Assembly (NCBI GenBank): GCA_025786725.1
Contig: JAHLTZ010000013.1
Span: 248,001 to 312,000 of the forward strand
DNA length: 64,000 nucleotides
From: Syncephalis fuscata
Lineage: Eukaryota; Zoopagomycota; Zoopagomycetes; Zoopagales; Piptocephalidaceae
Reading direction: 5' to 3'
Part shown: positions 7,558 to 52,050 of the stretch, piece by piece
How the letters are laid out: each line of letters begins with the position of its first letter
How positions within the stretch are numbered: the stretch's first letter is position 1
Position numbers and translations under genes: made by a program
The notes under the pieces: generated by a model
Databases searched by the model: none
Told to the model about the DNA's origin: nothing
The model's input: the letters and a program-made list of their open reading frames with translations, nothing else

Positions 7558-9582
7558 AGTGTAATAGAAAGAATGGCAAAGTTGATTGAGGAATTCCTAA
7601 ACCAATTAAGTATTGTTACGTTTGGAATTTGATGGTTGCCATTAAAATTCAATCCAATCAATTGATGTTAGATCGTTACATTCCCCTATTTAAACAAACT
7701 TCTTGGGCGTTTAATATCTTTTTTCCTACATAGTTCACTCACTCTTAAATAGCGCTTTTAATTTATACTGAAAATAGTCAATTTAAGCTATATTTTATTT
7801 TATATATCTTATTTTTAAAACAAACTAAATTTAATTGATTTTTTCGTTCAACTTTAGCTACTATTGGCCGTGTTTTAATATAAGCTTTTTATTTTTGTAT
7901 AATTATCTCTGTATATTCAATTCAATAAATTGGGTAATATATATATATACTATTATTCATTTACCATTAATATTAATAATGTAAATACGAGTTAGATGCA
8001 TATAATACTATTCCATTTAATACAAAGCATAAATTGATATTCTTATTTAAATCTTTATGTTAGAGCAACTGCAAGAACAGCGACTGAATGAAGAAAATAG
8101 TTTAAAGCAAAAATGATGGATTATCATGCGATAGTTCCAGTCAGCATAGCAACAACAACAACATAGCATTGGCTGTCTGTGTTATCGTCAGGCAGTTGAT
8201 TATAAGAATGCATATGCCTATTTGCATAACATCTTTTGTGTTTTGCAGAAAACATACCAACTCAATTGAATATCGTGCTACTTATCTATATTCTTGTAAA
8301 ACAACACATATTTATTAATACGGTAATTTGAATGATAAGTAATAAAACTGGTCTATTTAGAGCATCAGTATGTTATAGAATATGCCATTATTAAATAATA
8401 AATGTAATAAAAGATAAATAAATATTATTAATGTATAGCTTAGTAAAATAGTAAATATATTAACAAAAAACATTTAGCCTTTTTTTTGTACGTTAACATG
8501 CGGTAATATTCAAAGGAAAGTGATATAAATATAGCATAATGATCGAACAATGCTACATCAAACAATGCTTAAACTTAGTTGTCTACTTCTATTGTCTATC
8601 TATTTATATACAATTATCAACAGTTTGGCATTTATTTGAAGTGTTTTATGCAAAAAACATGCTAAATGACACAGCAGTAACATCCAAGTATAATTATTGC
8701 TTTGATTTTTATTTATCTTAGCTGGATAGCTGCAACTATATATGCCTTGCATCATCATTTCTTCTAAAATACTTGTTTATTCAGTCTACTTACAACATAC
8801 TGACTAATAATGTAGCCAGCTTCTATGTGTTGCAATTTACCCAAATAGAAACAAAAAACAACAAAAGTACAGTCTAAGTTTAAAAATGACTGCTAAATTT
8901 ATTCCATTGTGTTAACGAGTTTTTGGTCTGGCCCGCCTTATTGAAATACCTATTCATATGAAACAAATAGTGATTATGAGTATGCCTTTTCTTTTCCAAA
9001 TGCGCGTTGCTGCAGGTGTTTATCCAATCGATGCTAATAATAACTTCTAGATTGGCTTGTACATTCGCTATTAGACTTGTCACTTGTTTAACTAGTAAAA
9101 ACACTAATTAACATCATCTAGACTTTTTAGATAGGATTACAATAAAACTTCGGCGCTAATACTTGTATATGCGGTTTATTGGTCCACAATAGTTGTTGTA
9201 CACTAATAATCCTGTTTAACGAGTATTTGTAAAATGATGTTGTTGATTGGTGCTAAGTCTAAGTAAAATCTGCCATCTCAATCATCTACCATATGTTTTT
9301 ATTATCAAGGCCTTTGTTTGATGTTTGCATAAAGTCACAGTATTTGTGCAACTTAAATCCAGTTATTTGCAGCGACCAAATCGCTCAGGCTCATTATTAG
9401 AACTATGGTCATATACCAAGCCAAGTTTGCTCTCCTTAATATTTAAAAGCAATTGCTTTATAATGTTTGCCTAGTCGATTTATTTCGCTATAGTCTTATC
9501 AACTACCCGCTGTCTTTACTACTTTACTACTTTACTTTTTACCTTTTTCGTTAACTAAACGTGCTTTTATTGACTATTAAAT
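7558..9582. other. Long intergenic region containing a partial repeat
   Basis: Two kilobases between the 5' ends of SSL1 and the SDR gene. The only structured element is the repeat at 7896-8309. Short ORFs at 8539-8721 and 8880-9104 show no recognisable motif and are probably chance. The last 150 bp before 9583 contain pyrimidine-rich tracts (repeated CTACTTTA) typical of a fungal promoter. Confidence 0.45.
7896..8309 (+). repeat. Partial copy of the inverted-repeat arm end
   Basis: About 414 bp nearly identical to 19495-19908, with a few differences such as one fewer AT unit and single substitutions. It stops matching after ACAACACAT. Its inner 213 bp or so also match the outer end of the right arm (29952-30165, inverted). 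Inside it a short frame reads MLEQLQEQRLNEENSLKQK then stop, a heptad-like leucine pattern that could be the last exon of a coiled-coil gene. The source gene cannot be named. Confidence 0.85.
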
Positions 9583-19244: not shown

Positions 19245-19494
19245 TGTAACTGAATGCAAGTGTGTAAAAAAAGAAAAAAGCGGTACAGCGCATCGTTACG
19301 GTTTCATGATCAATTTAATATTTATTTGGTCAATGTCGTGAGTCACGATTGAGCATATTGATAATGGCAATATACAGTCATCATTTTATTTCTTTGTCGA
19401 TATATATATAATATGGAATAAATGGCAATTTTTCTAAAAAAATATTTGTATATTGTATTTTAAAAGCAATAGGTATTAATATAATTTTCTTATT
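19245..19494. other. Spacer between SDO1 and the repeat island
   Basis: 250 bp, very AT-rich, upstream of SDO1, so it carries that promoter; the repeat begins at about 19495. Confidence 0.4.
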
Positions 19495-19695
19495 CTTGTA
19501 TAATTATCTCTGTATATTCAATTCAATAAATTGGGTAATATATATATACTATTATTCATTTACCATTAATATTAATAATGTAAATACGAGTTAGATGCAT
19601 ATAATACTATTCCACTTAATACAAAGCATAAATTGATATTTTATTTAAATCTTTATGTTAGAGCAACTGCAAGAACAGCGACTGAATGAAGAAAA
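19495..19695 (+). repeat. Outer extension of the left arm, shared with the 7896 copy only
   Basis: About 200 bp matching 7896-8100 but absent from the outer end of the right arm. It shows that the original repeat unit was longer than the inverted arms and that the right arm is truncated at AAATAGTTTAAAGC. Confidence 0.8.
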
Positions 19696-22600
19696 TAGTT
19701 TAAAGCAAAAATGATGGATTATCATGCGATAGTTCCAGTCAGCATAGCAACAACAACAACATAGCATTGGCTGTCTGTGTTATCGTCAGGCAGTTGGTTA
19801 TAAGAATGCATATGCCTATTTGCATAACATCTTTTGTGTTTTGCAGAAAACATACCAACTCAATTGAATATCGTGCTACTTATCTATATTCTTGTAAAAC
19901 AACACATTTTAAAATGTAGGTCGTTATAATATGTAGACATAAAAGGTTTGGTCAGCAACCAACCACAGGCTCTAATGTCGTCTGTAGTACCGGTTCAGAA
20001 CAAGTAGCGCAACATAATAAGATCGATGAAATGCGATACAGTTGCCACTGACTATAAGAAAGATGTTGTCGTGAGAGAATACAAAATAAAGTGGTTTAAA
20101 AAGCATTTGCACTTAAGCTAGTAAGCATTCAGCCATTAGCACTAACTGGATGGCATATATGGTATGTGTAATTATAGGCAGTGGGTATATACTATCAGTG
20201 TGAAGAAAGAGAAAGGAAACTGTAATGGCATAGGCTGTGAACTGTGGATCCTGGCAGCCAATATTTATAAAGACGCGTTTAAATTATTAACAAGCGGAAT
20301 GTGAATAATAAAAGTCAATCTACATAACAAATTGGTAGATCGTAGAGCACGTTCTAAGTAAATAAATAGTGCATTAGAAATAAAAGTCATTTAGCACCAA
20401 AAACTACTCATTATCATAAAGTGTGTTGTTAGTAAAATAAAGCAATGATAACAATATGTTTGCAAACACTTCAGCGTTGTGTTTATTGCTACTACAGCTC
20501 TGATCATAGATTGACATCAACTATTGTGTCTATAGATGTTTAGATAATCATTCAGCCATGCATGCATGTGCTACGTTGTACTGGCCCTTGCAGTGTATAA
20601 AGCTACGTGTTTATTCCTGTTTTCATTTAACCAGTTTCACTACACTCTATAGTTCAATATAAATAAGATGTATTTTATTTCTGTTTAGCAGCATTAAAAC
20701 TCAATCGGTAGATTATGTGACACGTCGTTTTTAAAGGAAATCAAGCCATTTCATTTAACTAATAAAGTAATAGAATCAGTTATATCGATCCACCTAATTG
20801 TGTGCAGAATGGCAAGCATTTTGAAAAAGCAGGCGCATTTGATAGTGTCGGAAAATCGCTAGTATGACGGCACAATCAATTAAAAATGGTTGCATTTGGC
20901 AAATCTTTGGGTGCATTGGCCAATTGAATTGATCTTGCGCGGAAATGGCCAGCGAATAAAAAACGAAAGCGAGTAGGTTTGGAAAGAGGGAAGGGATTAT
21001 GATCCGATATACAGATCCGATAGCATCCGTGCACCACAATGTTCCAACTAGGTGCAATACGCCAATAAACAGCCACCACGTACTCTTTGCCAATACTGTC
21101 GATCCTAATTGATAGACATGTCTTAGATTAGGCTCATAAGGGTGTGTGGGCCCATTTTTGCTCGCTATCCCGCCTTCTTCTGTTTCTAGTTGTTAATGCG
21201 CTGTAACCACACTAGTTTACAGTATAAGCATCAGGTATGGTAGTTACATCCAGTGGCGTGGGATCCCTTTGCAGGTTGATCATGATATACTGTGTTCTTG
21301 CTTGTGGGCTGTGTTGAATGTATGGCACAATATTTGCAGACTATTGCGCTATACTGGCTCAGCAATTATATGGCTGCCTGTAATGGGTGGCTGTATACTA
21401 GCGTAGTGCGGAGACATGTGGAAGTTCTGGGTGCGCAGTATCGATATTTAGCAAGTTGGATATTGCTGATGTACACCCACCTCATGTTGATGCGGCAACC
21501 TGTGATGGGTAGCCATATGTTAGTGTCCATTTGTATTGAATGCGCGCTGGAGGTGTGGAGTAGTATTTAACTTGCGGAATGCTACCGCCACACACTAGAA
21601 CTGATGTGGTAAGTAAACACTTATGCTAAGTGAATATTTACTACCATGCTGTTTACTTGTGGGTATTAGTAGAAGATTGTAGTTAACATTAGTCTTAAAT
21701 ATCATCCAAAACTCCTGGTTTACTAGTGAATACAACATAGTGATGGAGCTTACTAGGGAAAGTTTTGTGGGACAGCTAGATGATGTTTATACGATCGCTT
21801 GCGACGTAGTAAAGGCTAACTGTTATATTGCACCTTTTAATAATGCATCAGTGTATGGCAATGCGTTGTTTAATTGCAATGTATTATGATATTCGTGTGC
21901 TCATATTTGCACACTAACTACAACTGGGTAAACCAGTAGCCTAGTAGTGCTTATGGATGCGCTTGAATTGTTATGGTATGTCGTATTGCTTATTAAACCG
22001 CATTGCCATCTTGACAATGCTAGTGTAGTTCTATAAGCTTCTGACATATGATAGTTGCGCCTAGTGGCGGTATCGTCAGTTCATCCGGTGGACGCATAGT
22101 TCTATAATCATTGCCATGATTAACAACTTTTAATATCGCTTTTAGTCTATAATATTTAATAACATATTACAGCAAAAAATGGTTACATCACAGGCCCATC
22201 TTAAGCAACATATAAACAACGACCGGTCAAGTGTTTGTTTATTGTCACTACTAAATAATACTGACACATTTTTGTTATAGCTATTCGACCATTGGTACCA
22301 GGACGACAAGTGCAATCTGGATACATTTGCCATCGTGTTCCACCATTTTGCGTGCAATTTACAATACCAATATTGTCTTTATTGACAGAAGTCACAGTTG
22401 CAGTACTATGTACTGCTGCTGGTAATACCTCTTGGTATGGGTTTCCAAATGGAAGTATATACCCATTTGGTTTTCATCCGCCAAGTGGTGATTGGTGTTG
22501 TAATTACACATCTGCTAAATGTGCTGGTTTGATTGAAGTGGTGGTAATAAAGTGGGAGGTGGTGGGACTTATATACATATATTTAAATAGAAGACTTTAA

Positions 22601-23005
22601 TAAGTAGCATGTATAGGTGTTTATTCCAGTAATATAGTATTATAATAATGACTTCATTATTGTTGTTTATATATTTGCTTATTATATTTACTTGGGTTAA
22701 AAAGTTATTGATACTTGAATAATTAGAATACAACCAAGTGCATCCGATACAACTATCGCATATTATATAGTTTGTTTATAATTAATTTATTACCTATTTG
22801 GTATGACTTGATGATCAAATGACTACATTTAATAGTATTTGCCTAATTGAACTAGATATTCAACCTATTGAACATGGAACCGGGCGGTGAGTTTTATTAA
22901 TAATAAAAATATTTGCTACTATAGATTTATTATTTAGTATGTATATATTCTTAGTCTATGCATATCATTACCACTGTAGATTCACACTGCCATATATCAT
23001 TATAT
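19696..23005 (+). repeat. Left arm of a 3.3-kb inverted repeat
   Basis: Read in reverse complement, this segment matches 26862-30165 almost base for base. The outer limit is AAATAGTTTAAAGC and the inner limit is ATATATCATTATAT. Differences are scattered substitutions and one-base indels, for example GCAGTACTATG here against GCAGTATATG in the right arm, and three small length changes near 20920-20940. Open frames inside (20794-21093 minus, 21292-21570 plus, 22292-22600 plus) match no family I know, and several are broken by these indels in one of the two arms. No transposase was found. Confidence 0.93.
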
Positions 23006-24422
23006 GGTATATTAGACACATTTTATTTTTTATTTACTTTAACAAATCTACTCATTCCATTCACTACGTTATACACGCTATAATTTTAGTACCGCTATTT
23101 ATACAATGAAAATTGTATATTCATATCATTTTATATTATTTCATACTACTTTGACATTAATATATTCAAAATGCCATTTTTATTGCAAACTATTTTTATA
23201 AGATTCAGGTTAATTCGTTTATTTCATTTATTGACCACTTACATTCTAGCTTCAACATTGCCATTCATATTTCTTACATTGTATATTTATCATATTATAC
23301 ACCATTATACTGCCTAATAATATTTAATTATCAATTGAAATTGTTTATTTATTGGTGCAGCATAATATTGCAATAACGATTTCATTATTATCACTTTTGT
23401 TAGTTTGCCGTGATTATCGACTACAGCAATAAAATACAATCAATTTCTATATTTCTTTGTCTCTATTTGCCTTTCACAAAGTATGCCATTGAGCACATTG
23501 TAAATTGCGCTTTTTGGCAAAGCTTATAGATTCTAACACATGATTTGTCCATTAAGTTTTAACATTGTCAAGTAGAGATATAAATAGAACACGTACACTG
23601 CATAACAAAGGCGTGTTGAAGTCAACTGGATGAAAACAATGTTAAACATGTGATTTTATTAGTTTTATTGTCAATATGTAACATAATAATATTGTACATA
23701 CATGCAGGCAAAATGGCTATTCAAAATACTGATGGCCGAGATAGTTTATTTTACAATTTGTAAAAACAACTGTAATATCAGTAACAAAATATAGTACAAA
23801 ATACTACATTAGAATAGTTGTATAATAAAATAGTATTGTGGATTTATTACTTTGAACTCCAAATAGCACTGTAACATTGTCCATTCGTTTACATTCATGC
23901 AGCACGTTAGTGCAGTTATTCGACGGAAGTACATATGCCAATCTTTGTACCTGTTTATTCAGTATGTGTGTATAACACTAGAAAGCTTCAATACTAGTGT
24001 TCAAAGTGTTGCAATGCAGCTAGAAAATAAAAATACATTGTTCTTTACACCTCGTATTTATTCTGATTGTTTCAGTTAACAAACAAGCATAATCCTGCAT
24101 AAATCATACCTATTTTGTGCTAAATATTTTCAACATTTATTTATAGCATCAAAGCTTTTAAGCATTGATGCTCAAAACATCATAATGCATTTAGAACAAT
24201 ATAATTATATTGTTTCTTTATACACATTGCTTTGTTCTAGTTGTTTTTAACCAATAAACGCAATTGCTCTAAATAAGTCATAAGTTTATTTTAGTTTAAA
24301 TACTGCTAGTATTTCACCATCAACTCATGTTTCTTTACTTCAAACAGCTACTCAATCTCAACCTTTGCTTCTTTATCTCAAACAACAATTTTTTGTCACA
24401 AATTTTACTTTATTTTAACATC
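23006..24422. other. Non-repeated spacer upstream of the kinase gene
   Basis: About 1.4 kb of very AT-rich DNA between the left arm and the kinase start. Short ORFs such as 23897-24079 have no recognisable features. The region just before 24423 has pyrimidine-rich runs and a second in-frame ATG at 24327, so the kinase promoter is probably here. Confidence 0.4.
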
Positions 24423-26464
24423 ATGGATCCTTTAAACACGCAACAATTCACCCCTGCGCTACCATCAAGTCAGCTAAGTCGCAATGATGCTTTTTACGAA
24501 AAAGTTCCACATTGCTGGGACAATTTGTCGCAAAATGAGCGCGATAATGCTGTTGGCTGGGTCGAGGTGTTTGACGAGGCCATTCAGGGTATGTCAAAAT
24601 AATACTAAATAAGCACGTATCTAAATACTAGATGTTTAGAATTTATTTTATTTGCCAATCAAGATTTTACTGTTGGTACTGGTCAACAATGGTAAGTAAC
24701 AGTAGACTTTATATATAACAACAAATTAAAAATGTATATATGTCAAATAGCACTTATCAGTTAGATTGGTTTGGTATGCCACAAGTTTTCTTTACATTTA
24801 GCAGTAAGTACTTATACTCTAATAAACAACTAATTAGAAATAATGTAGACAAAAAACATTACGTGTACAGTAAGTAAATAGTTATTAAAATATTTATACT
24901 AATTAGTAAATTAGAAACGATTACAAAGCTAATGGTTAGTTAATAAGTAATAAAATAAAGTATTAACATTTAATTTAGTTAATATCGTCAAACAATTCAG
25001 ATCAATTAATTCGACATGAAAAGATGTTTATTAAAATGCCTGACTTTAGAAGTAGTACCAATTATTCATTATTATTAGTATTATTATTAACCATAAGTTG
25101 TAGCAACATTTACTGTTCATAAACTTGAAATCGCCATTGTCATACCAGAAGAAACAACCGACGAATACAATCAAGTAAGTTTATAATTATAATTAAACAC
25201 CAAAATAACATATTTGCTACCATTGTAGAAGGTCGGTAGGCGATTTGCGCTTACTACAAAAGACCTTGGTCGGTAAGTATTTAGACTAATTAAAATAAAT
25301 GGATAGCTAATTGCTTATAACAGAGGTCGTACTGGCACAGTACGCCTAGCATTTGATTTCCGAACGCACCAACGCGTTGCTGTTAAGGTTTTACGGCACG
25401 GCCGTAATAATGAATACATTAGAAATGAGGCTAGGACCTTAAGTACAGTGAGAGGCTATCCTTATTTTATAAATGCAGTAAAAGTGATAGCCACCGCCAG
25501 AAAAACGTACTTTGTTCTTAATTATATGCGTGGTGGTAATTTGACTAGCTATATTAATCGTCGTGGCCCACTTCCAGAAATGGAAGTAAAAGATATTTTT
25601 AGGCAACTATTTGAAGGTGTTTTTGTAAGTATTACAATAACTAGTTATTAAAACGCTAACTTTGTATTAGTGTTTGTATACTTCAAGTATTGCGCATGGC
25701 GGTAAGTTTATTTATTTATATATGTTACCATTATTAATTAGTACTATTATTGTCATCATTTAATTAGACATCAAAGTAACTAATTAATTAATTTAATATT
25801 AAGCATAATTACTAACAGCCAAATAGCCCGATAATATATTGTTAGATATGGACTGTCAATTTCCCGAAATTGCGTACACAGACTTTGGAACGACTCATCG
25901 GGTAGGACCTATCTCACAATGCGTTCTTTGTGGCACCAGGCCATATGTGCGCCCGAGGTGATATTATCATCACATTTACGGGAAAATATACTGGCAGCTG
26001 CCAGAGCTGAGGAAGATCAAACAATTTACAACAAGCTAACTTCACCTCCACTAAGTATCCATGGGTATGACACACCCATCGACATGTGGAGTTTGGGAGT
26101 GATACTCTATGAGATGCTATTAGGTAAGCGTGAACAAAAAGCAAAATATTGTACCAACTAGTTATTTTACATTGTAATTAGGACATTGTCCTTATGATGG
26201 CGGACAAAGTGCATATAAATATATAAAAAATATATTACAAACACCACTTGATTTTGGACAAGAAAATCAACTAAGCAGTGAAGGTAAGTTAGGTATTTAT
26301 TCAATAACAATGGCTAACATTGCGCAGCTATTGAGCTGATAAAACAGCTACTTGACATTAACAAGCGCACACGGCTTACAGCGGAAGATGCATTGAACTC
26401 TCCCTGGTTTGATGACATGCGAGAAGCGAATGCAACTGAAATAAATGAACAAATAAATATTTAG
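24423..26464 (+). CDS. FHA-domain serine/threonine kinase (Chk2/Rad53-like), probable frameshift
   Basis: ATG chosen at 24423 (MDPLNTQQF); an in-frame ATG at 24327 would add a hydrophobic leader. About ten exons splice in frame, with introns of roughly 40-180 nt. The N-terminus resembles a divergent FHA domain (DFTVGTGQQC, then YQLDWFGMPQVFFTFS). The kinase domain shows the glycine loop LGRGRTGTVRLA, VAVKVL with the ATP-binding Lys, the catalytic loop HGDIKPDNILLD (HGD instead of HRD), TDFGTT, CGTRPYV, and DMWSLGVILYEMLLG, ending in LLDINKRTRLTAEDALNSPW. At about 25947-25952 one base appears missing, so CGTRPYV is out of frame with APEV. A 38-nt intron could hide this but would delete the CGT-Tyr loop. 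Family role: DNA-damage checkpoint signalling. It is the only recognisable gene between the inverted arms. Confidence 0.75.
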
Positions 26465-26861
26465 AATAAGAATAGTGCTTTATTTTAATAATATGGACAA
26501 TCCTATATAGAAAAAGGAGCTAGCCTAGAAGCATGTATATAGCAATGTCATAATAACACATAAAAGTGTTTTTTGGGTGTAAATGGCTTTTATTTTTTAA
26601 TTGATTTTTAATTGATCTTTTAATTTACTAAATATATGTTCTATAATAATGAGTAGTTCTAAGGGTAAAATGACATTTATTCTTGATGCATTATTGCTTT
26701 ATACTTATAATAGCAATGGTATAGAAGATAATGCTGTACCAGTACTGAGCAATTTTGCAATATTAATATAAAAGCGCGATTTGCTATTATGCTGTTACTG
26801 TATGTGTACATATGTCATCATACTGACCGTGTTGGCTATATTTACTGTTGTTTTTCTATTT
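26465..26861. other. Spacer between the kinase gene and the right arm
   Basis: 397 bp, AT-rich, no ORF; contains the kinase 3' end region. Confidence 0.4.
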
Positions 26862-29800
26862 ATATAATGATATATGGTAGTGTGAATCTACAGTGGTAAT
26901 GATATGTGTAGACTAAGAATATATACATACTAAATAATAAATCTATAGTAGCAAATATTTTTATTATTAATAAAACTCATCGCCCGGTTCCATGTTCAAT
27001 AGGTTGAATATCTAGTTCAATTAGGCAAATACTATTAAATGTAGTCATTTGATCATCAAGTCATACCAAATAGGTAATAAATTAATTATAAACAAACTAT
27101 ATAATATGCGATAGTTGTATCGGATGCACTTGGTTGTATTCTAATTATTCAAGTATCAATAACTTTTTAACCCAAGTAAATATAATAAGCAAATATATAA
27201 ACAACAATAATGAAGTCATTATTATAATACTATATTACTGGAATAAACACACTATACATGCTACTTATTAAAGTCTTCTATTTAAATATATGTATATAAG
27301 TCCCACCACCTCCCACTTTATTACCACCACTTCAATCAAACCAGCACATTTAGCAGATGTGTAATTACAACACCAATCACCACTTGGCGGATGAAAACCA
27401 AATGGGTATATACTTCCATTTGGAAACCCATACCAAGAGGTATTACCAGCAGCAGTACATATACTGCAACTGTGACTTCTGTCAATAAAGCAATAGTTGG
27501 TATTGTAAATTGCACGCAAAATGGTGGAACACGATGGCAAATGTATCCAGATTGCACTTGTCGTCCTGGTACCAATGGTCGAATAGCTATAACAAAAATG
27601 TGTCAGTATTATTTAGTAGTGACAATAAACAAACACTTGACCGGTCGTTGTTTATATGTTGCTTAAGATGGGCCTGTGATGTAACCATTTTTTGCTGTAA
27701 TATGTTATTAAATATTATAGACTAAAAGCGATATTAAAAGTTGTTAATCATGGCAATGATTATAGAACTATGCGTCCACCGGATGAACTGACGATACCGC
27801 CACTAGGCGCAACTATCATATGTCAGAAGCTTATAGAACTACACTAGCATTGTCAAGATGGCAATGCGGTTTAATAAGCAATACGACATACCATAACAAT
27901 TCAAGCGCATCCATAAGCACTACTAGGCTACTGGTTTACCCAGTTGTAGTTAGTGTGCAAATATGAGCACACGAATATCATAATACATTGCAATTAAACA
28001 ACGCATTGCCATACACTGATGCATTATTAAAAGGTGCAATATAACAGTTAGCCTTTACTACGTCGCAAGCGATCGTATAAACATCATCTAGCTGTCCCAC
28101 AAAACTTTCCCTAGTAAGCTCCATCAATGTTGTATTCACTAGTAAACCAGGAGTTTTGGATGATATTTAAGACTAATGTTAACTGCAATCTTCTACTAAT
28201 ACCCACAAGTAAACAGCATGGTAGTAAATATTCACTTAGCATAAGTGTTTACTTACCACATCAGTTCTAGTGTGTGGCGGTAGCATTCCGCAAGTTAAAT
28301 ACTACTCCACACCTCCAGCGCGCATTCAATACAAATGGACACTAACATATGGCTACCCATCACAGGTTGCCGCATCAACATGAGGTGGGTGTACATCAGC
28401 AATATCCAACTTGCTAAATATCGATACTGCGCACCCAGAACTTCCACATGTCTCCGCACTACGCTAGTATACAGCCACCCATTACAGGCAGCCATATAAT
28501 TGCTGAGCCAGTATAGCGCAATAGTCTGCAAATATTGTGCCATACATTCAACACAGCCCACAAGCAAGAACACAGTATATCATGATCAACCTGCAAAGGG
28601 ATCCCACGCCACTGGATGTAACTACCATACCTGATGCTTATACTGTAAACTAGTGTGGTTACAGCGCATTAACAACTAGAAACAGAAGAAGGCGGGATAG
28701 CGAGCAAAAATGGGCCCACACACCCTTATGAGCCTAATCTAAGACATGTCTATCAATTAGGATCGACAGTATTGGCAAAGAGTACGTGGTGGCTGTTTAT
28801 TGGCGTATTGCACCTAGTTGGAACATTGTGGTGCACGGATGCTATCGGATCTGTATATCGGATCATAATCCCTTCCCTCTTTCCAAACCTACTCGCTTTC
28901 GTTTTTTATTCGCTGGCCATTTCCGCGCAAGATCAATCAATTGGCCAATGCACCCAAGATTTGCCAAATGCAACCATTTTAATTGATTGTGCCGTCATAC
29001 TAGCGATTTTCCGACACTATCAAATGCGCCTGCTTTTTCAAAATGCTTGCCATTCTGCACACAATTAGGTGGATCGATATAACTGATTCTATTACTTTAT
29101 TAGTTAAATGAAATGGCTTGATTTCCTTTAAAAACGACGTGTCACATAATCTACCGATTGAGTTTTAATGCTGCTAAACAGAAATAAAATACATCTTATT
29201 TATATTGAACTATAGAGTGTAGTGAAACTGGTTAAATGAAAACAGGAATAAACACGTAGCTTTATACACTGCAAGGGCCAGTACAACGTAGCACATGCAT
29301 GCATGGCTGAATGATTATCTAAACATCTATAGACACAATAGTTGATGTCAAGCTATGATCAGAGCTGTAGTAGCAATAAACACAACGCTGAAGTGTTTGC
29401 AAACATATTGTTATCATTGCTTTATTTTACTAACAACACACTTTATGATAATGAGTAGTTTTTGGTGCTAAATGACTTTTATTTTTAATGCACTATTTAT
29501 TTACTTAGAACGTGCTCTACGATCTACCAATTTGTTAGGTAGATTGACTTTTATTATTCACATTCCGCTTGTTAATAATTTAAACGCGTCTTTATAAATA
29601 TTGGCTGATAGGATCCACAGTTCACAGCCTATGCCATTACAGTTTCCTTTCTCTTTCTTCACACTGATAGTATATACCCACTGCCTATAATTACACATAC
29701 CATATATGCCATCCAGTTAGTGCTAATGGTTGAATGCTTACTAGCTTAAGTGCAAATGCTTTTTAAACCACTTTATTTTGTATTCTCTCACGACAACATC

Positions 29801-30165
29801 TTTCTTATAGTCAGTGGCAACTGTATCGCATTTCATCGATCTTATTATGTTGCGCTACTTGTTCTGAACCGGTACTACAGACGACATTAGAGCCTGTGGT
29901 TGGTTGCTGACCAAACCTTTTATGTCTACATATTATAACGACTACATTTTAAACATGTGTTGTTTTACAAGAATATAGATAAGTAGCACGATTTCAATTG
30001 AGTTGGTATGTTTTCTGCAAACACAAAAGATGTTATGCAAATAGGCATATGCATTCTTATAATCAACTGCCTGACGATAACACAGACAGCCAATGCTATG
30101 TTGTTGTTGTTGCTATGCTGACTGGAACTATCGCATGATAATCTATCATTTTTGCTTTAAACTAT
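26862..30165 (-). repeat. Right arm of the 3.3-kb inverted repeat
   Basis: The inverted counterpart of 19696-23005, same length within about 6 bp. It ends outward at GCTTTAAACTATT, followed by unrelated DNA (TACCCATCC). No target-site duplication is visible when the flanks of the two arms are compared. Divergence is low and spread evenly, as expected for a duplicated block kept similar by recent origin or gene conversion. Confidence 0.93.
27391..27666 (+). CDS. Short Cys-containing ORF in the right arm, doubtful
   Basis: ATG-initiated frame of 91 residues with a cysteine/glycine-rich core: VNCTQNGGTRWQMYPDCTCR, then PGTNGR, reminiscent of an EGF-like or other small disulfide module. The left-arm equivalent is broken upstream by a one-base indel, leaving only the C-terminal 64 residues open. 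No signal peptide is visible. The opposite strand is also open and contains NTSWYGFPNGSIYPFGFHPP followed by SGDWCCNYTSAKC, so which strand was ever coding is unclear. Low confidence. Confidence 0.2.
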   Translation: MKTKWVYTSIWKPIPRGITSSSTYTATVTSVNKAIVGIVNCTQNGGTRWQMYPDCTCRPGTNGRIAITKMCQYYLVVTINKHLTGRCLYVA

Positions 30166-30505
30166 TTACCCATCCATTAATTGTCGCAATTTTTAGTTAA
30201 TGTATATTTGTTTCATCAATATACTGTGTGATCAAGAAAGACATACTTTATTATCCATATCAGATGTCAAATAGTGCACACTTATACATGCTCATATTTT
30301 AATGCTAAATAGCTCACTAATATTAAATGTATATTTAATCTTTAAATCTTTACAATATTTAATAAAGCTTACTGGTTTGTACATTTTTAATTCTACCGTT
30401 AATGGCGGACTTTCAATACAAAATACTCAAAACAGCCAAATACGCTACGTCATTACACTAGTTTCTTTTCTTTTCATTCTTATTCATCGCCATCTCACCT
30501 TGCCT

Positions 30506-38070: not shown

Positions 38071-39283
38071 AATTATGGATATAAAAACAAAAAAAAACAA
38101 AAAGCGAAAGCAATTAAACTTTTACCTTTTTATTTACTCATTTCACTTCCTTTTTTAATACTTTTAGACACAATTAAACACCTATTCATTACTATAACAT
38201 ATATAATATTGCACCCAACATTAATTAATTCATGTTTAATTATCAATACAATAATGTAATTAATTAGTTATTTTATGTTTCTTTAATATATATATGTCAT
38301 TATGATATTAATTGTTCAAAATGCCATTTATTTAGTCAGATTGACTATAGAAGATGACTGTTTAATAAACAACATCTATACTAATTATATTAATATTGAT
38401 CTTACATCACAGATATGCTCAAAATGCAATAGTAGAAAATTAGAAAATAAAAGCGATCGTTTAGATGCAATAATTTACATCGTATGTAGATACAATAACA
38501 ACAAATGACATAAAATCGTAATCATATGGCTTTTATTAATATTCTATCAATCTTTCTACACATGGTCAATAACAATGATAATTAGTCTTAAATGTTCTAA
38601 AGAAACCAAATAGTATGGTATATCGTTTATTTAAATCAGTTTATTAAAAATATTTTAATAGGAAGTAATAAAGTTGCAACACTAAAGCATTTTTACTAAT
38701 TCTTTGCTCGTTTCTTTATAGTTTTTGCTAATACTTTTTTCGTTAACTAATGTAGAAACAGTCATTTTTTATATAGAATTTAATGTTGAATTTAGCATTG
38801 TAGATAAAGTTAAATTGTAATATTCACTTTGTAACTTTGTTTAGTAGTAATTTTTTGCTTATTTCATTTTTAACGCATATCTTATTAGTTTAACTGATGA
38901 GGACACTCATATAACAATAGGCAGCATAAGCAATGAATGATTATTTATCGTACTTCTCAAGCACATTGCTATAGATTTCCCTTGATTAATAACAAAGTGT
39001 TTGTTAGTTCGTAAAGTCGCTCTAAATATTTTAGCAGCATGTTTTGGCACGCGTCCATCGTTTGTAGCGTATCATTTAAACTAAACACTAATTAACATTG
39101 TTAATACACTGCATAACAAAACATATCATTGATTTTAGACATGTTAAGCTGGTTAGCTGGTTTTAAAGCAAATATTAGTAGGTATTGGATTTACAAAAGC
39201 CATTGTTGACAATCACTATAAAAATGTGATAAATTAATCTTATACTGATTTTAGCAATCAAATATAAAATAGCTATGCAAATT
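38071..39283. other. Gene-poor region with a transposase relic
   Basis: 1.2 kb, strongly AT-rich. Apart from the Fanzor/TnpB relic at about 38380-38585, no ORF or repeat is supportable. It contains the upstream region of TRM10 and the downstream region of the acyltransferase gene. Confidence 0.45.
38380..38585 (+). pseudogene. Fanzor/TnpB-type transposase relic, C-terminal zinc-ribbon end
   Basis: In one frame the sequence reads NIDLTSQICSKCNSRKLENK (38392-38451). After a frame change it continues HMAFINILSIFLHMVNNN to a TAG at 38583-38585. The same two blocks, in the same order and highly similar at nucleotide level, occur in the relic at 50901-51285, where CGTIWNHD joins them. This is the CxxC...CxxxWNRD zinc ribbon plus RuvC-III end of TnpB/Fanzor proteins. 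Frameshifts and loss of the second cysteine pair make it non-functional. No N-terminal part is visible upstream. Confidence 0.65.
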
Positions 39284-49621: not shown

Positions 49622-52050
49622 GATGAATAGAACAGTGTTGCAAGGATTTGTGTTACAATGAATATATGTTTTTAGTCAGTATAGTATGATGTATAGTGTT
49701 ATGTAGATAACTAAATAATTGGTACTTCTATCACAGACGAGAAAAAGAGATGTTAAGCGGTTGTTGTGTAGTGAATAAAGATAGTGCTAGTAATATAATG
49801 GTGGATACGCTATTTGAATAAAGTAACACCAGACTTGAACAGCGTTGGTGTAGAATATCAAAATTGGAAACAATGAATATTTGCGGAATACTGGATGAAA
49901 TACTCGAGTAGTATCGAATTGTTGCTTTTATAGGCACTACGTGTTAATTTAAAGTGATTTTACTTGTAAGTTTACGCGGATGCGTGTGCGTGGCAGAGAC
50001 AAGGCGCAAGTGCAGCGATAAACGATTCAAGGTTCAGTAGATTGGATAAAATTGGGAGTGTGCATTGAATGCATGCCAGTGGAGCGTGTACACAAATGAT
50101 ATGTATGCACTAATGGGATGATTAATAAACTGAAAGAAGAGAGGGAATAGCGTAGTGATAGCAAAGTTATGCGTCTGCAAATAGTGCCCTATAACCTTGT
50201 GACTATGTAAAAAAATGAAAGCTGATTAACTATTGCATTTGTTACTACTGCAAATGGAAAATGAATACATAGAATAAACGATATTAAAATAGCAGATTTA
50301 TAATCTTCAAACAAATGAAACAAAATTTTTATGATTGGCATGACACTGTTTTATTCGTAAGACATGGGAACAGGCTGCTTATTGTCTGTTCGCCTCTGCT
50401 TCCATTAGAAAATGAAAATCTGCTGTATGACCGCATGTACATGCACATCTGCACTCGTGCACGCACATATGTTCGAATTGGCCATTCAAGACATGTGAAT
50501 CTATCCGTGCCACATCACGGCACAGTTTAATCTTGTATGAATAGTTTACGATCAGTAAGTCCCGATGCCGCAGTGTATGAACGCAACACAGAAAGAAATA
50601 AAGATTACGCACATACATACGCGTGTCACTCGCTGATCCTATAACAAGTTTTGAGAATGATGGGCTTGAATGAATCTGCCTGTATAGATATTTGAATGCT
50701 CTCTAACGACAGCATTAAACACTAGACATTGTTAGCCATGCGGGGATTACTCCCCTATTGCCATTCTATCGAATATTTATTTGTATTGTAGATTGAAATG
50801 TAATAACATTATCATTTTTATAAAATAGAATTAAATGTAATAGAACATTGTATTAGTAACTGCTGTTTTAAACCTTTGAATAAATAATGTAACATGCCAT
50901 TTAACTACTTTGAAATCCACGAGGCCGATCATTGTTGTTGTTGGCTATGCGTAGAAAGATTGATTGAATATTAATAAAAACCATATGGTCGTGATTCCAT
51001 ATCGTTCCGCAGTTGTTATTGTTGTTACTACGTACAGTGTGGTTTCTTTGCATCTAAATGGTCTATTCTATTCTCCAATCTTCTACTGTTGCATTTTGGA
51101 CATATCTGTGATGTAAGATACTCGTCTATGGTGACAAAAGGTAGGACGACTAGCGTTTCTAATGTTCACCATTCTCTTAAGCATTCTTGGCATCAACTTG
51201 GTAGGCGCAGTTTATTTGCCAATCATTGATAAAGCAAATGGCCTCCACTATATGCAATAATGATAGGTTGAGTGTCTTCACCAGAAAGATCTTGTGACGA
51301 CAGGTGTAACCAGAATATACGGCATGCCGTTGAGATTACTTGAACAGGTGTTAATGTAAAATAATAGAAATAAAGACTAGGGACTGAGTAGTGTTCTTTA
51401 TTGATGTTCAAATATGCATGTTATTTATATTGCTATATTTAGCATTATCATGTAATATATTACTAAATAGAGCAATAGGATAACAATAGGAAAATAAGAG
51501 TGAAATGAGTAAATAAAAATATAAGAGTCAAAATACAGTAGCTCCGTTTATGTAATTGCTTTGTTATACTTAAAAAGTACTAAAAATTATTTAATACTAT
51601 TATTGCTGTAAAAGAGTGAAAAATTGGGCAATACATATTACCGAATATGCTGATAATTTGCAATGATGATAACAAAGTTTTAAGTACTGTCAATAATGAT
51701 CAAGGTCAAGGCAATTTGGAGATAAATAAATTGCTTAGCTAGATTAACTAATTAATTATATGCATTAAAGACAGCTGATAGCCGACAGTAGTATACATGC
51801 AGCTGTCTGTGCTAAATTAATTATAGTGAATTATTATTGATAGAGACACTAGTTAATTTACTTTGAGTGTGGCACTACTGGTATAGATAGACACAAACAA
51901 CTTATGATGAATGAATCACGAACATAAAAAAGGCTATTTGTTTTAAAAACAATGTGTGTGTGTGTGTATGTAGAAGAATAAATATGAAATTGCAAATTAA
52001 ACAAAACTGCTATTCAAAATTAATCTGGTTTTTCAAGTTCAATTAATGAA
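49622..52050. other. Intergenic region with a transposase relic
   Basis: 2.4 kb between array members 1 and 2. It contains the Fanzor/TnpB relic at 50901-51285 and a (TG)n run at about 51954-51969. Other short ORFs (50315-50530, 50379-50618) have no support. Confidence 0.45.
50901..51285 (-). pseudogene. Fanzor/TnpB-type transposase relic, best preserved
   Basis: Minus strand, pieces in order: EDTQPIIIAYSGGHLLYQ (RuvC-II approach), a degraded stretch with three stops, FVTIDEYLTSQICPKCNSRR followed by LENRID, then after a frame change NNNNNCGTIWNHDHMVFINI, QSIFLRIANNNNDRPRGF and a TAA at 50901-50903. The DEY acid, the CPKC half-ribbon, the single Cys of CGTIW, and the NHD triplet (canonical NRD) place it in the TnpB/Fanzor family C-terminus. 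Nucleotide similarity to 38380-38585 is high across both blocks, so both came from the same element family. Stops and frameshifts exclude activity. Confidence 0.78.

What the first reader, a model, noticed from the sequence alone, without database searches (positions are those of the whole stretch)
19696..30165. 10.5-kb island: 3.3-kb inverted arms around a single kinase gene
Seen: 19696-23005 and 26862-30165 are reverse complements of each other, with only scattered substitutions and 1-nt indels, flanking 3.86 kb that holds one recognisable gene, an FHA-kinase. No transposase, recombinase or target-site duplication was found. Inference: either a cargo-carrying long-TIR element mobilised in trans, or an inverted segmental duplication that lets the kinase segment flip by arm recombination, or an assembly join of two haplotypes. 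The flip model is attractive because inversion between arms would leave the arms intact and only reorient the kinase.
Basis: partly seen in the sequence, partly recalled or inferred. Interest (0 to 1): 0.75.

Follow-up and report, generated by a model that had tools for sequence, protein, structure and literature searches.

The report
Mirrored RNA genes flanking a kinase
In a fungus that parasitises other fungi, the mirror-image arms are two copies of a repeated, non-protein-coding sequence that likely makes a large folded RNA and that at most other places found in this genome sits back-to-back with genes of one family of FHA-type kinases, a pairing that would be a new type of RNA-kinase gene module.

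Summary
The inverted arms are real (19693-23005 and 26862-30167, 99.2% over 3316 columns), but they are neither a transposon nor unique. The organism is Syncephalis fuscata. Each arm holds a ~2.1-kb non-coding sequence found, whole or in part, at 55 places in this assembly, haplotype duplicates included (capped searches). At 33 of 55 it lies head-to-head with a gene of one FHA-type kinase family. One strand carries a covarying RNA fold: 97.0% of cells paired, 59 double-change cells against at most 10 when slid; pairs learned on five copies hold at 91-94% in five others. Rfam has no match. The window arms, C245 and C278 are kinase-less units. In the window both RNAs point inward at a kinase gene with a frame break. 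The arms' outer 0.4 kb is not unit sequence, and part of it recurs with arm 1's flank at 7872-8312, so arm 2 is likely an inverted duplicate of arm 1. The arm2-kinase junction recurs at C227 at 98-99%, so it is unlikely to be an assembly artefact. Transcription, function and flipping are untested.

The parts
19693..23005 (+). inverted-repeat arm 1
   Evidence: self-BLAST 99.2% with 30167-26862; 34 differing columns
26862..30167 (-). inverted-repeat arm 2
19693..20093 (+). outer 0.4 kb of arm 1: not matched by any of the 19 other stretches compared; its first 220 bases recur, with the left flank, at 8095-8314
29769..30167 (-). outer 0.4 kb of arm 2, same sequence
20094..20441 (+). tail: homologous to the sequence downstream (3') of kinase genes in complete units; here joined directly to the RNA region
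29421..29768 (-). tail in arm 2
20475..22622 (+). non-coding core, the part shared with most other copies; no conserved reading frame
27245..29386 (-). non-coding core in arm 2
21241..21671 (+). main structured RNA domain (121 pairs in the consensus), arm 1
28194..28624 (-). main structured RNA domain, arm 2
21366..21527 (+). match to covariance model R1, 161.2 bits (a training sequence)
28338..28499 (-). match to covariance model R1, 161.2 bits (same score as the training row from arm 1)
22012..22115 (+). second structured RNA domain (38 pairs), arm 1; approximate ends
27752..27855 (-). second structured RNA domain, arm 2; approximate ends
   Evidence: by position; arm 2 itself was not in that alignment
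24424..26464 (+). FHA-type protein kinase gene with short introns (NCBI model = P0005, 438 aa); frame broken relative to sibling copies in the activation segment, about 25940-25955
26565..26701 (+). short element found at 27 other places in the genome, many just downstream of kinase genes; related to 29421-29503
26091..27690 (+). tract 93-99.5% identical to C227 (64-87% to its left, 70-85% to its right), crossing the kinase-arm2 junction: likely interlocus exchange
19473..19910 (+). left flank plus outer arm 1, 97.5% identical to 7872-8312
7872..8312 (+). third copy of left flank plus outer end of the arm

Best explanation
Each arm is a copy of a repeated non-coding unit that likely makes a large folded RNA and that at 33 of 55 places found in this genome lies head-to-head with a gene of one FHA-type kinase family; in the window a kinase-less copy was likely duplicated in mirror image beside a damaged kinase gene. 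Shown: the arms, their kinship to the dispersed family, the head-to-head arrangement, covariation of paired bases favouring one strand (inward-reading in the window), lack of a shared reading frame, sequence that runs from tail to core without a kinase in the window arms, C245 and C278, and the third copy of arm 1's flank. Inferred: that the RNA is transcribed; that arm 2 arose from arm 1 by inverted duplication during DNA repair; and that copies then exchanged sequence by gene conversion. Mechanism I think most likely (about 35%): the RNA is a shared, trans-acting partner or regulator of the many different kinases, made from a divergent start region between RNA and kinase. In one group of loci the RNA differs by only 6-12% while the kinases differ by up to 42%, which fits one common RNA serving many kinases better than a private RNA for each.
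For: Arms and family. Head-to-head pairing: 27 of 39 motif hits (2213-3490 bases, median 2511) and 33 of 55 merged loci; the pattern read backwards hits 0 times. RNA fold: 97.0% of 1684 cells paired, 59 double-change cells against 3-10 in slid structures; 0 of 500 shuffles reach the paired percentage, the double-change cells or the covariation score; second domain 93.1%, 17 double-change cells against 2-7 slid; held-out test 93.8% and 91.2% paired against 28-50% slid; consensus energy per 100 columns -24.2 on the RNA strand, -8.0 on the other, -1.5 to -8.7 in ten kinase-gene controls; departures from Watson-Crick consensus to G-U against A-C 134:20. Model R1: 21 whole-model hits of 155 bits or more at 20 distinct places, 8 of them not in its training set, all on the expected strand; best opposite-strand score 19.1. 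Not coding. Kinase under purifying selection, dN/dS 0.20-0.46 over 28 pairs. FHA plus kinase fold: Rad53 and CHK2 rank first. RNA and kinase distances. Junction shared with C227. Third flank copy.
Against: No transcript data. 17 of 55 loci have no kinase exon within 8 kb in my list, and 16 of 49 kinase places have no such RNA upstream, so the pairing is not obligatory. Loci and haplotype duplicates are not independent; both searches scored only their best candidates; the 15 motif-only places were not cut out, so their fold is unchecked beyond 30 bases. In one search the number of further pair types did not exceed the shuffles (498 of 500 as high; 134 of 500). In the held-out test the double-change cells were 9 against 0-5 slid and 16 against 2-13 slid, a weak margin the second time. 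The sliding-window z-scan that first showed the fold (11 of 72 windows below -3) is not discriminating: the kinase gene gave 8 of 34 and 7 of 34. The kinase controls are 7 more divergent copies, so not a matched control (7 core copies give -23.7). The last part of the core folds about equally on both strands. Any predicted structure favours G-U over A-C (control ratios 1.2-3:1). Window, C227, C233 and C224 RNAs differ from the rest by 21-40%, and between window and C227 the RNA (0.24) differs more than the kinase (0.20); the RNA and kinase distance matrices correlate only weakly (Mantel r 0.37, p 0.06).
Confidence: 0.62

Rival explanations
1. The folded sequence is the transcribed leader or by-product of a divergent promoter shared with the kinase, copied along with each kinase gene and without a function of its own.
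For: Constant head-to-head arrangement at ~2.5 kb.
Against: Covarying helices over ~430 bases suggest selection on an RNA fold; kinase-less copies at C245, C278 and the window keep it; in one group of loci the RNA is better conserved than the kinase.
Confidence: 0.15
2. A selfish or toxin-antidote-like pair: the kinase harms, the RNA restrains it, and the module spreads by this, with solo RNAs as surviving antidotes.
For: Many dispersed copies, kinase-less RNAs that keep their fold, kinase copies with single-base gaps; among the 120 hits listed, 10 are S. fuscata and the rest are at most 33% identical.
Against: No sign of recent movement: at the one site where I compared both haplotypes (C264 and C267) the unit sits at the same place. 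RNA and kinase do not track each other closely. No toxicity data.
Confidence: 0.1
3. The inverted arms act as a switch: recombination between them flips the kinase segment.
For: Arms 99.2% identical over 3.3 kb; the C227 exchange tract suggests that copies recombine.
Against: Only one orientation turned up in the assembly; no recombinase in the arm frames tested (the rest of the window was not searched for one); the kinase has a frame break; both orientations would leave the same inward RNAs, so a benefit is not evident.
Confidence: 0.1
4. The palindrome is partly an assembly artefact, for example two haplotypes or a chimeric read joined through the repeat.
For: The assembly holds alternative haplotypes 98.4% alike, close to the arm identity; the arm1-kinase junction has no second witness; single-base gaps in several copies could be sequencing errors.
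Against: The arm2-kinase junction is at C227 too, 98-99% alike; the arms differ at 34 columns; the 5.7 and 5.8 kb outside the arms matched nothing else apart from the 7872-8312 copy.
Confidence: 0.15
5. A long-TIR transposable element carrying the kinase as cargo.
For: Inverted arms, dispersed copies.
Against: Ends not shared among the copies compared, outer 0.4 kb partly local DNA, no target-site duplication, no transposase in the arm frames tested; the 33 head-to-head loci have the core on the kinase's 5' side in one fixed orientation, unlike the window.
Confidence: 0.03

Closest known systems
RUF6 (GC-rich) ncRNA family of Plasmodium falciparum, beside central var genes (PMC6974570: outline and Introduction read)
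   Same: A multi-copy ncRNA family lying beside members of a variant protein gene family and proposed to act on the whole family. The RNA region here is at GC 0.42 (21001-22000), among the higher 1-kb blocks of the window.
   Different: [quoted passage not shown] Here the structured region spans roughly 0.9 kb, lies in fixed head-to-head order, and the partners are FHA-type kinases. Direct sequence kinship to RUF6 was not tested; Rfam 15 gave no match.
CHK2/Rad53 FHA-kinase family
   Same: Predicted N-terminal all-beta domain plus kinase domain; Rad53 and CHK2 structures rank first.
   Different: No Pfam FHA match even at E 1; tens of divergent copies in one genome; C-terminal basic tail in several copies; no checkpoint role shown.
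Type III toxin-antitoxin pairs such as ToxIN (recalled, no call)
   Same: Protein gene beside a structured RNA gene.
   Different: Bacterial, RNA of short tandem repeats upstream of the toxin in one operon (recalled); here divergent genes, a long multi-helix RNA and a kinase in a fungus.

Membership tests
long-TIR DNA transposon | same terminal ends in several copies | tested here: not met
   other copies share the core but run past or stop short of the arm ends
long-TIR DNA transposon | target-site duplication | tested here: not met
   none at 19683-19692 / 30168-30177 (read by eye)
long-TIR DNA transposon | transposase in the element or an autonomous relative | tested here: inconclusive
   none in 10 arm frames tested with Pfam; the genome was not searched for one
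invertible switch | long inverted repeats around the segment | tested here: met
invertible switch | both orientations present | tested here: inconclusive
   one orientation in the assembly, no second haplotype of the site found; reads not available
FHA kinase (CHK2/Rad53-like) | protein kinase domain | tested here: met
   PF00069, E 4.5e-47 for the window protein P0005
FHA kinase (CHK2/Rad53-like) | FHA domain | tested here: inconclusive
   no PF00498 at E 1 in 9 proteins; Foldseek of the P0001 model puts Rad53 and CHK2 two-domain structures first, 415-436 columns, rmsd 16-18; the second aligner covered only residues 176-458
structured non-coding RNA gene | covarying helices beyond chance | tested here: met
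   with the reservations in the Against line
structured non-coding RNA gene | no conserved reading frame | tested here: met
structured non-coding RNA gene | transcription | not testable with these tools
   no RNA data
RUF6-like ncRNA family | multi-copy RNA beside a multigene family | tested here: met
   (as a resemblance, not kinship)
RUF6-like ncRNA family | RNA polymerase III transcription and control of the neighbouring family | not testable with these tools
   no RNA data
type III toxin-antitoxin | toxic protein neutralised by the RNA | not testable with these tools
   needs an experiment
known Rfam family | match at or above gathering score | tested here: not met
   no match in the window; none up to E 1 in five related loci

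The most novel reading that the evidence does not exclude
Syncephalis fuscata carries an undescribed RNA-kinase system: dozens of head-to-head modules in which a conserved, large structured RNA is the common trans-acting partner or switch for a diversified family of FHA kinases, and in which kinase-less RNA copies, such as the mirrored pair in this window, act as extra sources of the regulator.
Probability: 0.3. Interest if true: 0.88.

Novelty: new variant of a known kind. Interest (0 to 1): 0.7.

Why it matters
A large RNA fold supported by many covarying copies, with no Rfam relative and a fixed head-to-head position beside one kinase family, is not something I found described: the searches list no such paper by title or abstract start, and two fungal structured-RNA surveys do not contain the term zoopag in their main text (PMC8216456, whose database is Ascomycota; PMC5640933; term searches only). 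If transcribed, it would give a testable case of one RNA serving a multigene kinase family in a mycoparasite, comparable to RUF6 and var but independent of it. It also shows that a puzzling inverted island can be a by-product of a hidden RNA gene family.

Tried and rejected
Coding gene in the arms: six-frame peptides and 14 copies compared; no long frame is shared and indels are mostly not multiples of three (for example 1 of 24 between window and C227). Known RNA: Rfam gathering scan of the window and E-value scan of 5 loci, none. Virus: exact motif scan of viral contigs, 0. Diversifying selection on the kinase, suggested by exons being less alike than introns: rejected by codon analysis, dN/dS 0.20-0.46; introns are instead more conserved than synonymous sites. 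Sliding-window z-scores as evidence of structure: not relied on, because the kinase-gene control also gave windows below -3. First part of the core (20900-21240) as structured: weak, -16 kcal over 389 columns, 3 of 39 pairs with double changes. Strict co-evolution of RNA and kinase: weak. A second haplotype or empty site for the island: none found by flank searches. The pdb_via comparison did not bear on the N-terminal domain. Literature: the searches listed no title or abstract start that describes this RNA or this kinase family. Papers seen: PMC6974570 outline and Introduction; PMC8216456, PMC7482067, PMC6784888 and PMC5640933 by term search, passages only; PMC9670795 in a search listing.
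Full report
What was claimed and what is there. The inverted arms are real: 19693-23005 and 26862-30167, 99.2% over 3316 columns, 34 differing columns of 3323 aligned (25 substitutions, 9 gaps). The spacer holds one kinase gene. The contig is C35 of an unnamed 28.95-Mb assembly. It is Syncephalis fuscata: NCBI proteins of that name lie on contigs of the same lengths (668898, 822624, 289375 and others), and P0005 reads the window's own kinase. The species belongs to the Zoopagales; the genus is described as mycoparasitic (PMC6784888, passages).

The arms belong to a family. The arm as a DNA query gives 63 matches in its own genome, with only 40 of 695 candidates scored. From that list I took 40 distinct core places, the two window arms included, and left out short fragments and second pieces of one place. 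The spacer as a query gives kinase copies beside many of the same places. Mapping both to 19 stretches put together from the fetched loci showed a common unit: core, about 0.4 kb, kinase gene, a short 3' element (26565-26701), then a tail (29444-29768). In the window arms the tail runs straight into the core (20441|20475), with kinase and upstream region missing; C245 and C278 are likewise continuous there.

The core is not a protein gene. No long frame is shared among 14 copies; indels between copies are mostly not multiples of three, 1 of 24 for window against C227, 4 of 21 for C146 against C267. Pfam gave nothing of note for 10 arm frames.

The core carries an RNA fold. An alignment of 14 copies of 21240-21700 yields a consensus of 121 pairs, -109 kcal. 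Counted without energies, 97.0% of 1684 cells pair; 59 cells changed on both sides and still pair, against 3-10 when one strand is slid by 1-3 columns; 0 of 500 shuffles reach these values or the covariation score, though the number of further pair types is no higher than in shuffles. Because the structure came from the same rows, I learned it on five copies and tested it on five others: 93.8% of cells paired, and 91.2% the other way round, against 28-50% when slid; double-change cells were 9 against 0-5 and 16 against 2-13. A fold of C146 alone held at 85.2% in nine others. Departures from Watson-Crick consensus go to G-U 134 times and to A-C 20 times, which points to RNA on the arm 1 plus strand; structures predicted on the kinase gene give 1.2-3 to 1. 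Energy per 100 columns is -24.2 on that strand, -8.0 on the other, and -1.5 to -8.7 in ten kinase-gene controls from 7 more divergent copies; the same domain with 7 copies gives -23.7. A second domain near 22012-22115 has 38 pairs and 17 double-change cells against 2-7 slid. The region before 21240 is weak, and the last part of the core folds about equally on both strands. A covariance model of 158 positions gives 21 whole-model hits of 155 bits or more at 20 distinct places over 29 held sources; 12 of the 20 were in the training set. All are on the expected strand; the best opposite-strand score is 19.1. Rfam has nothing.

The RNA sits head-to-head with kinases. A 30-base degenerate motif from the fold hits 39 times in the genome with up to 3 mismatches, 28 with none, and 0 times read backwards. 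I compiled 49 kinase places: 46, 2, 1 (48 of them when one search ran). 27 of 39 motif hits have a kinase exon on the 5' side on the opposite strand at 2213-3490 bases, median 2511, measured to the start of the matched exon; 8 have none within 8 kb; 4 differ: the two window arms, C227 and C233:98452. Merging DNA and motif places gives 55 loci (24 by both, 16 by DNA only, 15 by motif only): 33 head-to-head, 17 without a kinase exon within 8 kb, 5 other; 33 of 49 kinase places have such an RNA upstream. Haplotype duplicates are included (C264 is the second haplotype of C267:342.7-351.7 kb, 98.4%), and three of the 49 match at only 28-33% identity and may be ordinary kinases. In the window both RNAs read inward at the kinase, unlike the usual order.

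The kinases. Codon analysis of 28 pairs of 8 copies gives dN/dS 0.20-0.46, so the family is under purifying selection. The predicted fold of P0001 (mean pLDDT 66; N-terminal beta domain about 75-92) has Rad53 and CHK2 as best matches, although Pfam sees no FHA domain. The window copy is out of frame with its siblings in the activation segment; the NCBI model leaves that stretch out. Several other copies also show single-base gaps, so some breaks may be sequencing errors. RNA distances among C246, C179, C267, C146, C101 and C116 are 0.06-0.12 while several of their kinase distances are 0.32-0.42; window, C227, C233 and C224 RNAs stand further off (0.21-0.40). Over 11 loci the two matrices correlate weakly (Mantel r 0.37, p 0.06). 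This fits, but does not prove, one common RNA with many kinases.

How the island formed. The outer 0.4 kb of the arms was not matched in the other units compared, which continue instead with shared sequence past the point where the window arms leave it. Window 7872-8312 matches 19473-19910 at 97.5%, so that sequence continues unbroken across arm 1's outer end; arm 2's outer end matches only up to 30167. Arm 1 with its flank therefore looks like the original and arm 2 the inverted copy. C227 matches the window at 93-99.5% from about 26091 to 27690, across the kinase-arm2 junction, with 64-87% to the left and 70-85% to the right: a likely gene-conversion tract, and independent support for that junction.

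Mechanism, shown and inferred. Shown: fold, favoured strand, arrangement, copy family, junctions. Inferred: transcription, inverted duplication by DNA repair, gene conversion, and that the RNA acts as a shared partner or regulator of the kinases. The nearest working analogy is RUF6 beside var genes (PMC6974570, Introduction read). Flipping of the kinase by arm recombination is possible but has no evidence here.

Noticed in passing
window 7872-8312 and 19473-19910: Direct repeat of 441 bases, 97.5%, that crosses the outer boundary of arm 1; where it first came from is open.
   Followed up: partly
window 24424-26464 against L012-L018 and L020: Short introns of the kinase family are about 2-6 times less divergent than synonymous sites (for example intron 0.30 against dS 1.08, window and C267). 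Splice signals in such short introns may explain part of it.
   Followed up: partly
window 26091-27690 and L027: Tract 93-99.5% identical between two loci whose flanks are 64-87% alike, a likely interlocus gene conversion.
   Followed up: yes
L021-L023 (C224:20000-49700) and L024-L025 (C285): Another inward-facing pair of RNA copies 9 kb apart (C224:29476+ and 38536-), with the same spacing on contig C285, in a cluster of four copies on C224.
   Followed up: partly
window 26565-26701: Short element with matches at 27 other places in the genome, many just downstream of kinase genes; others have no kinase in my list.
   Followed up: partly
G000 contigs C264 and C30: Small contigs that match larger ones at 98.4% (C264) and 98.3% over the kinase (C30 against C35:355 kb): the assembly seems to keep alternative haplotypes.
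   Followed up: partly
window 38399-38575 and 50935-51119: Inverted repeat, 77% over 185 columns, unrelated to the arms.
   Followed up: no
P0001, P0006, P0008, P0009: Kinases share a basic C-terminal motif with FRKCR.NK near the end; the window kinase lacks it.
   Followed up: no
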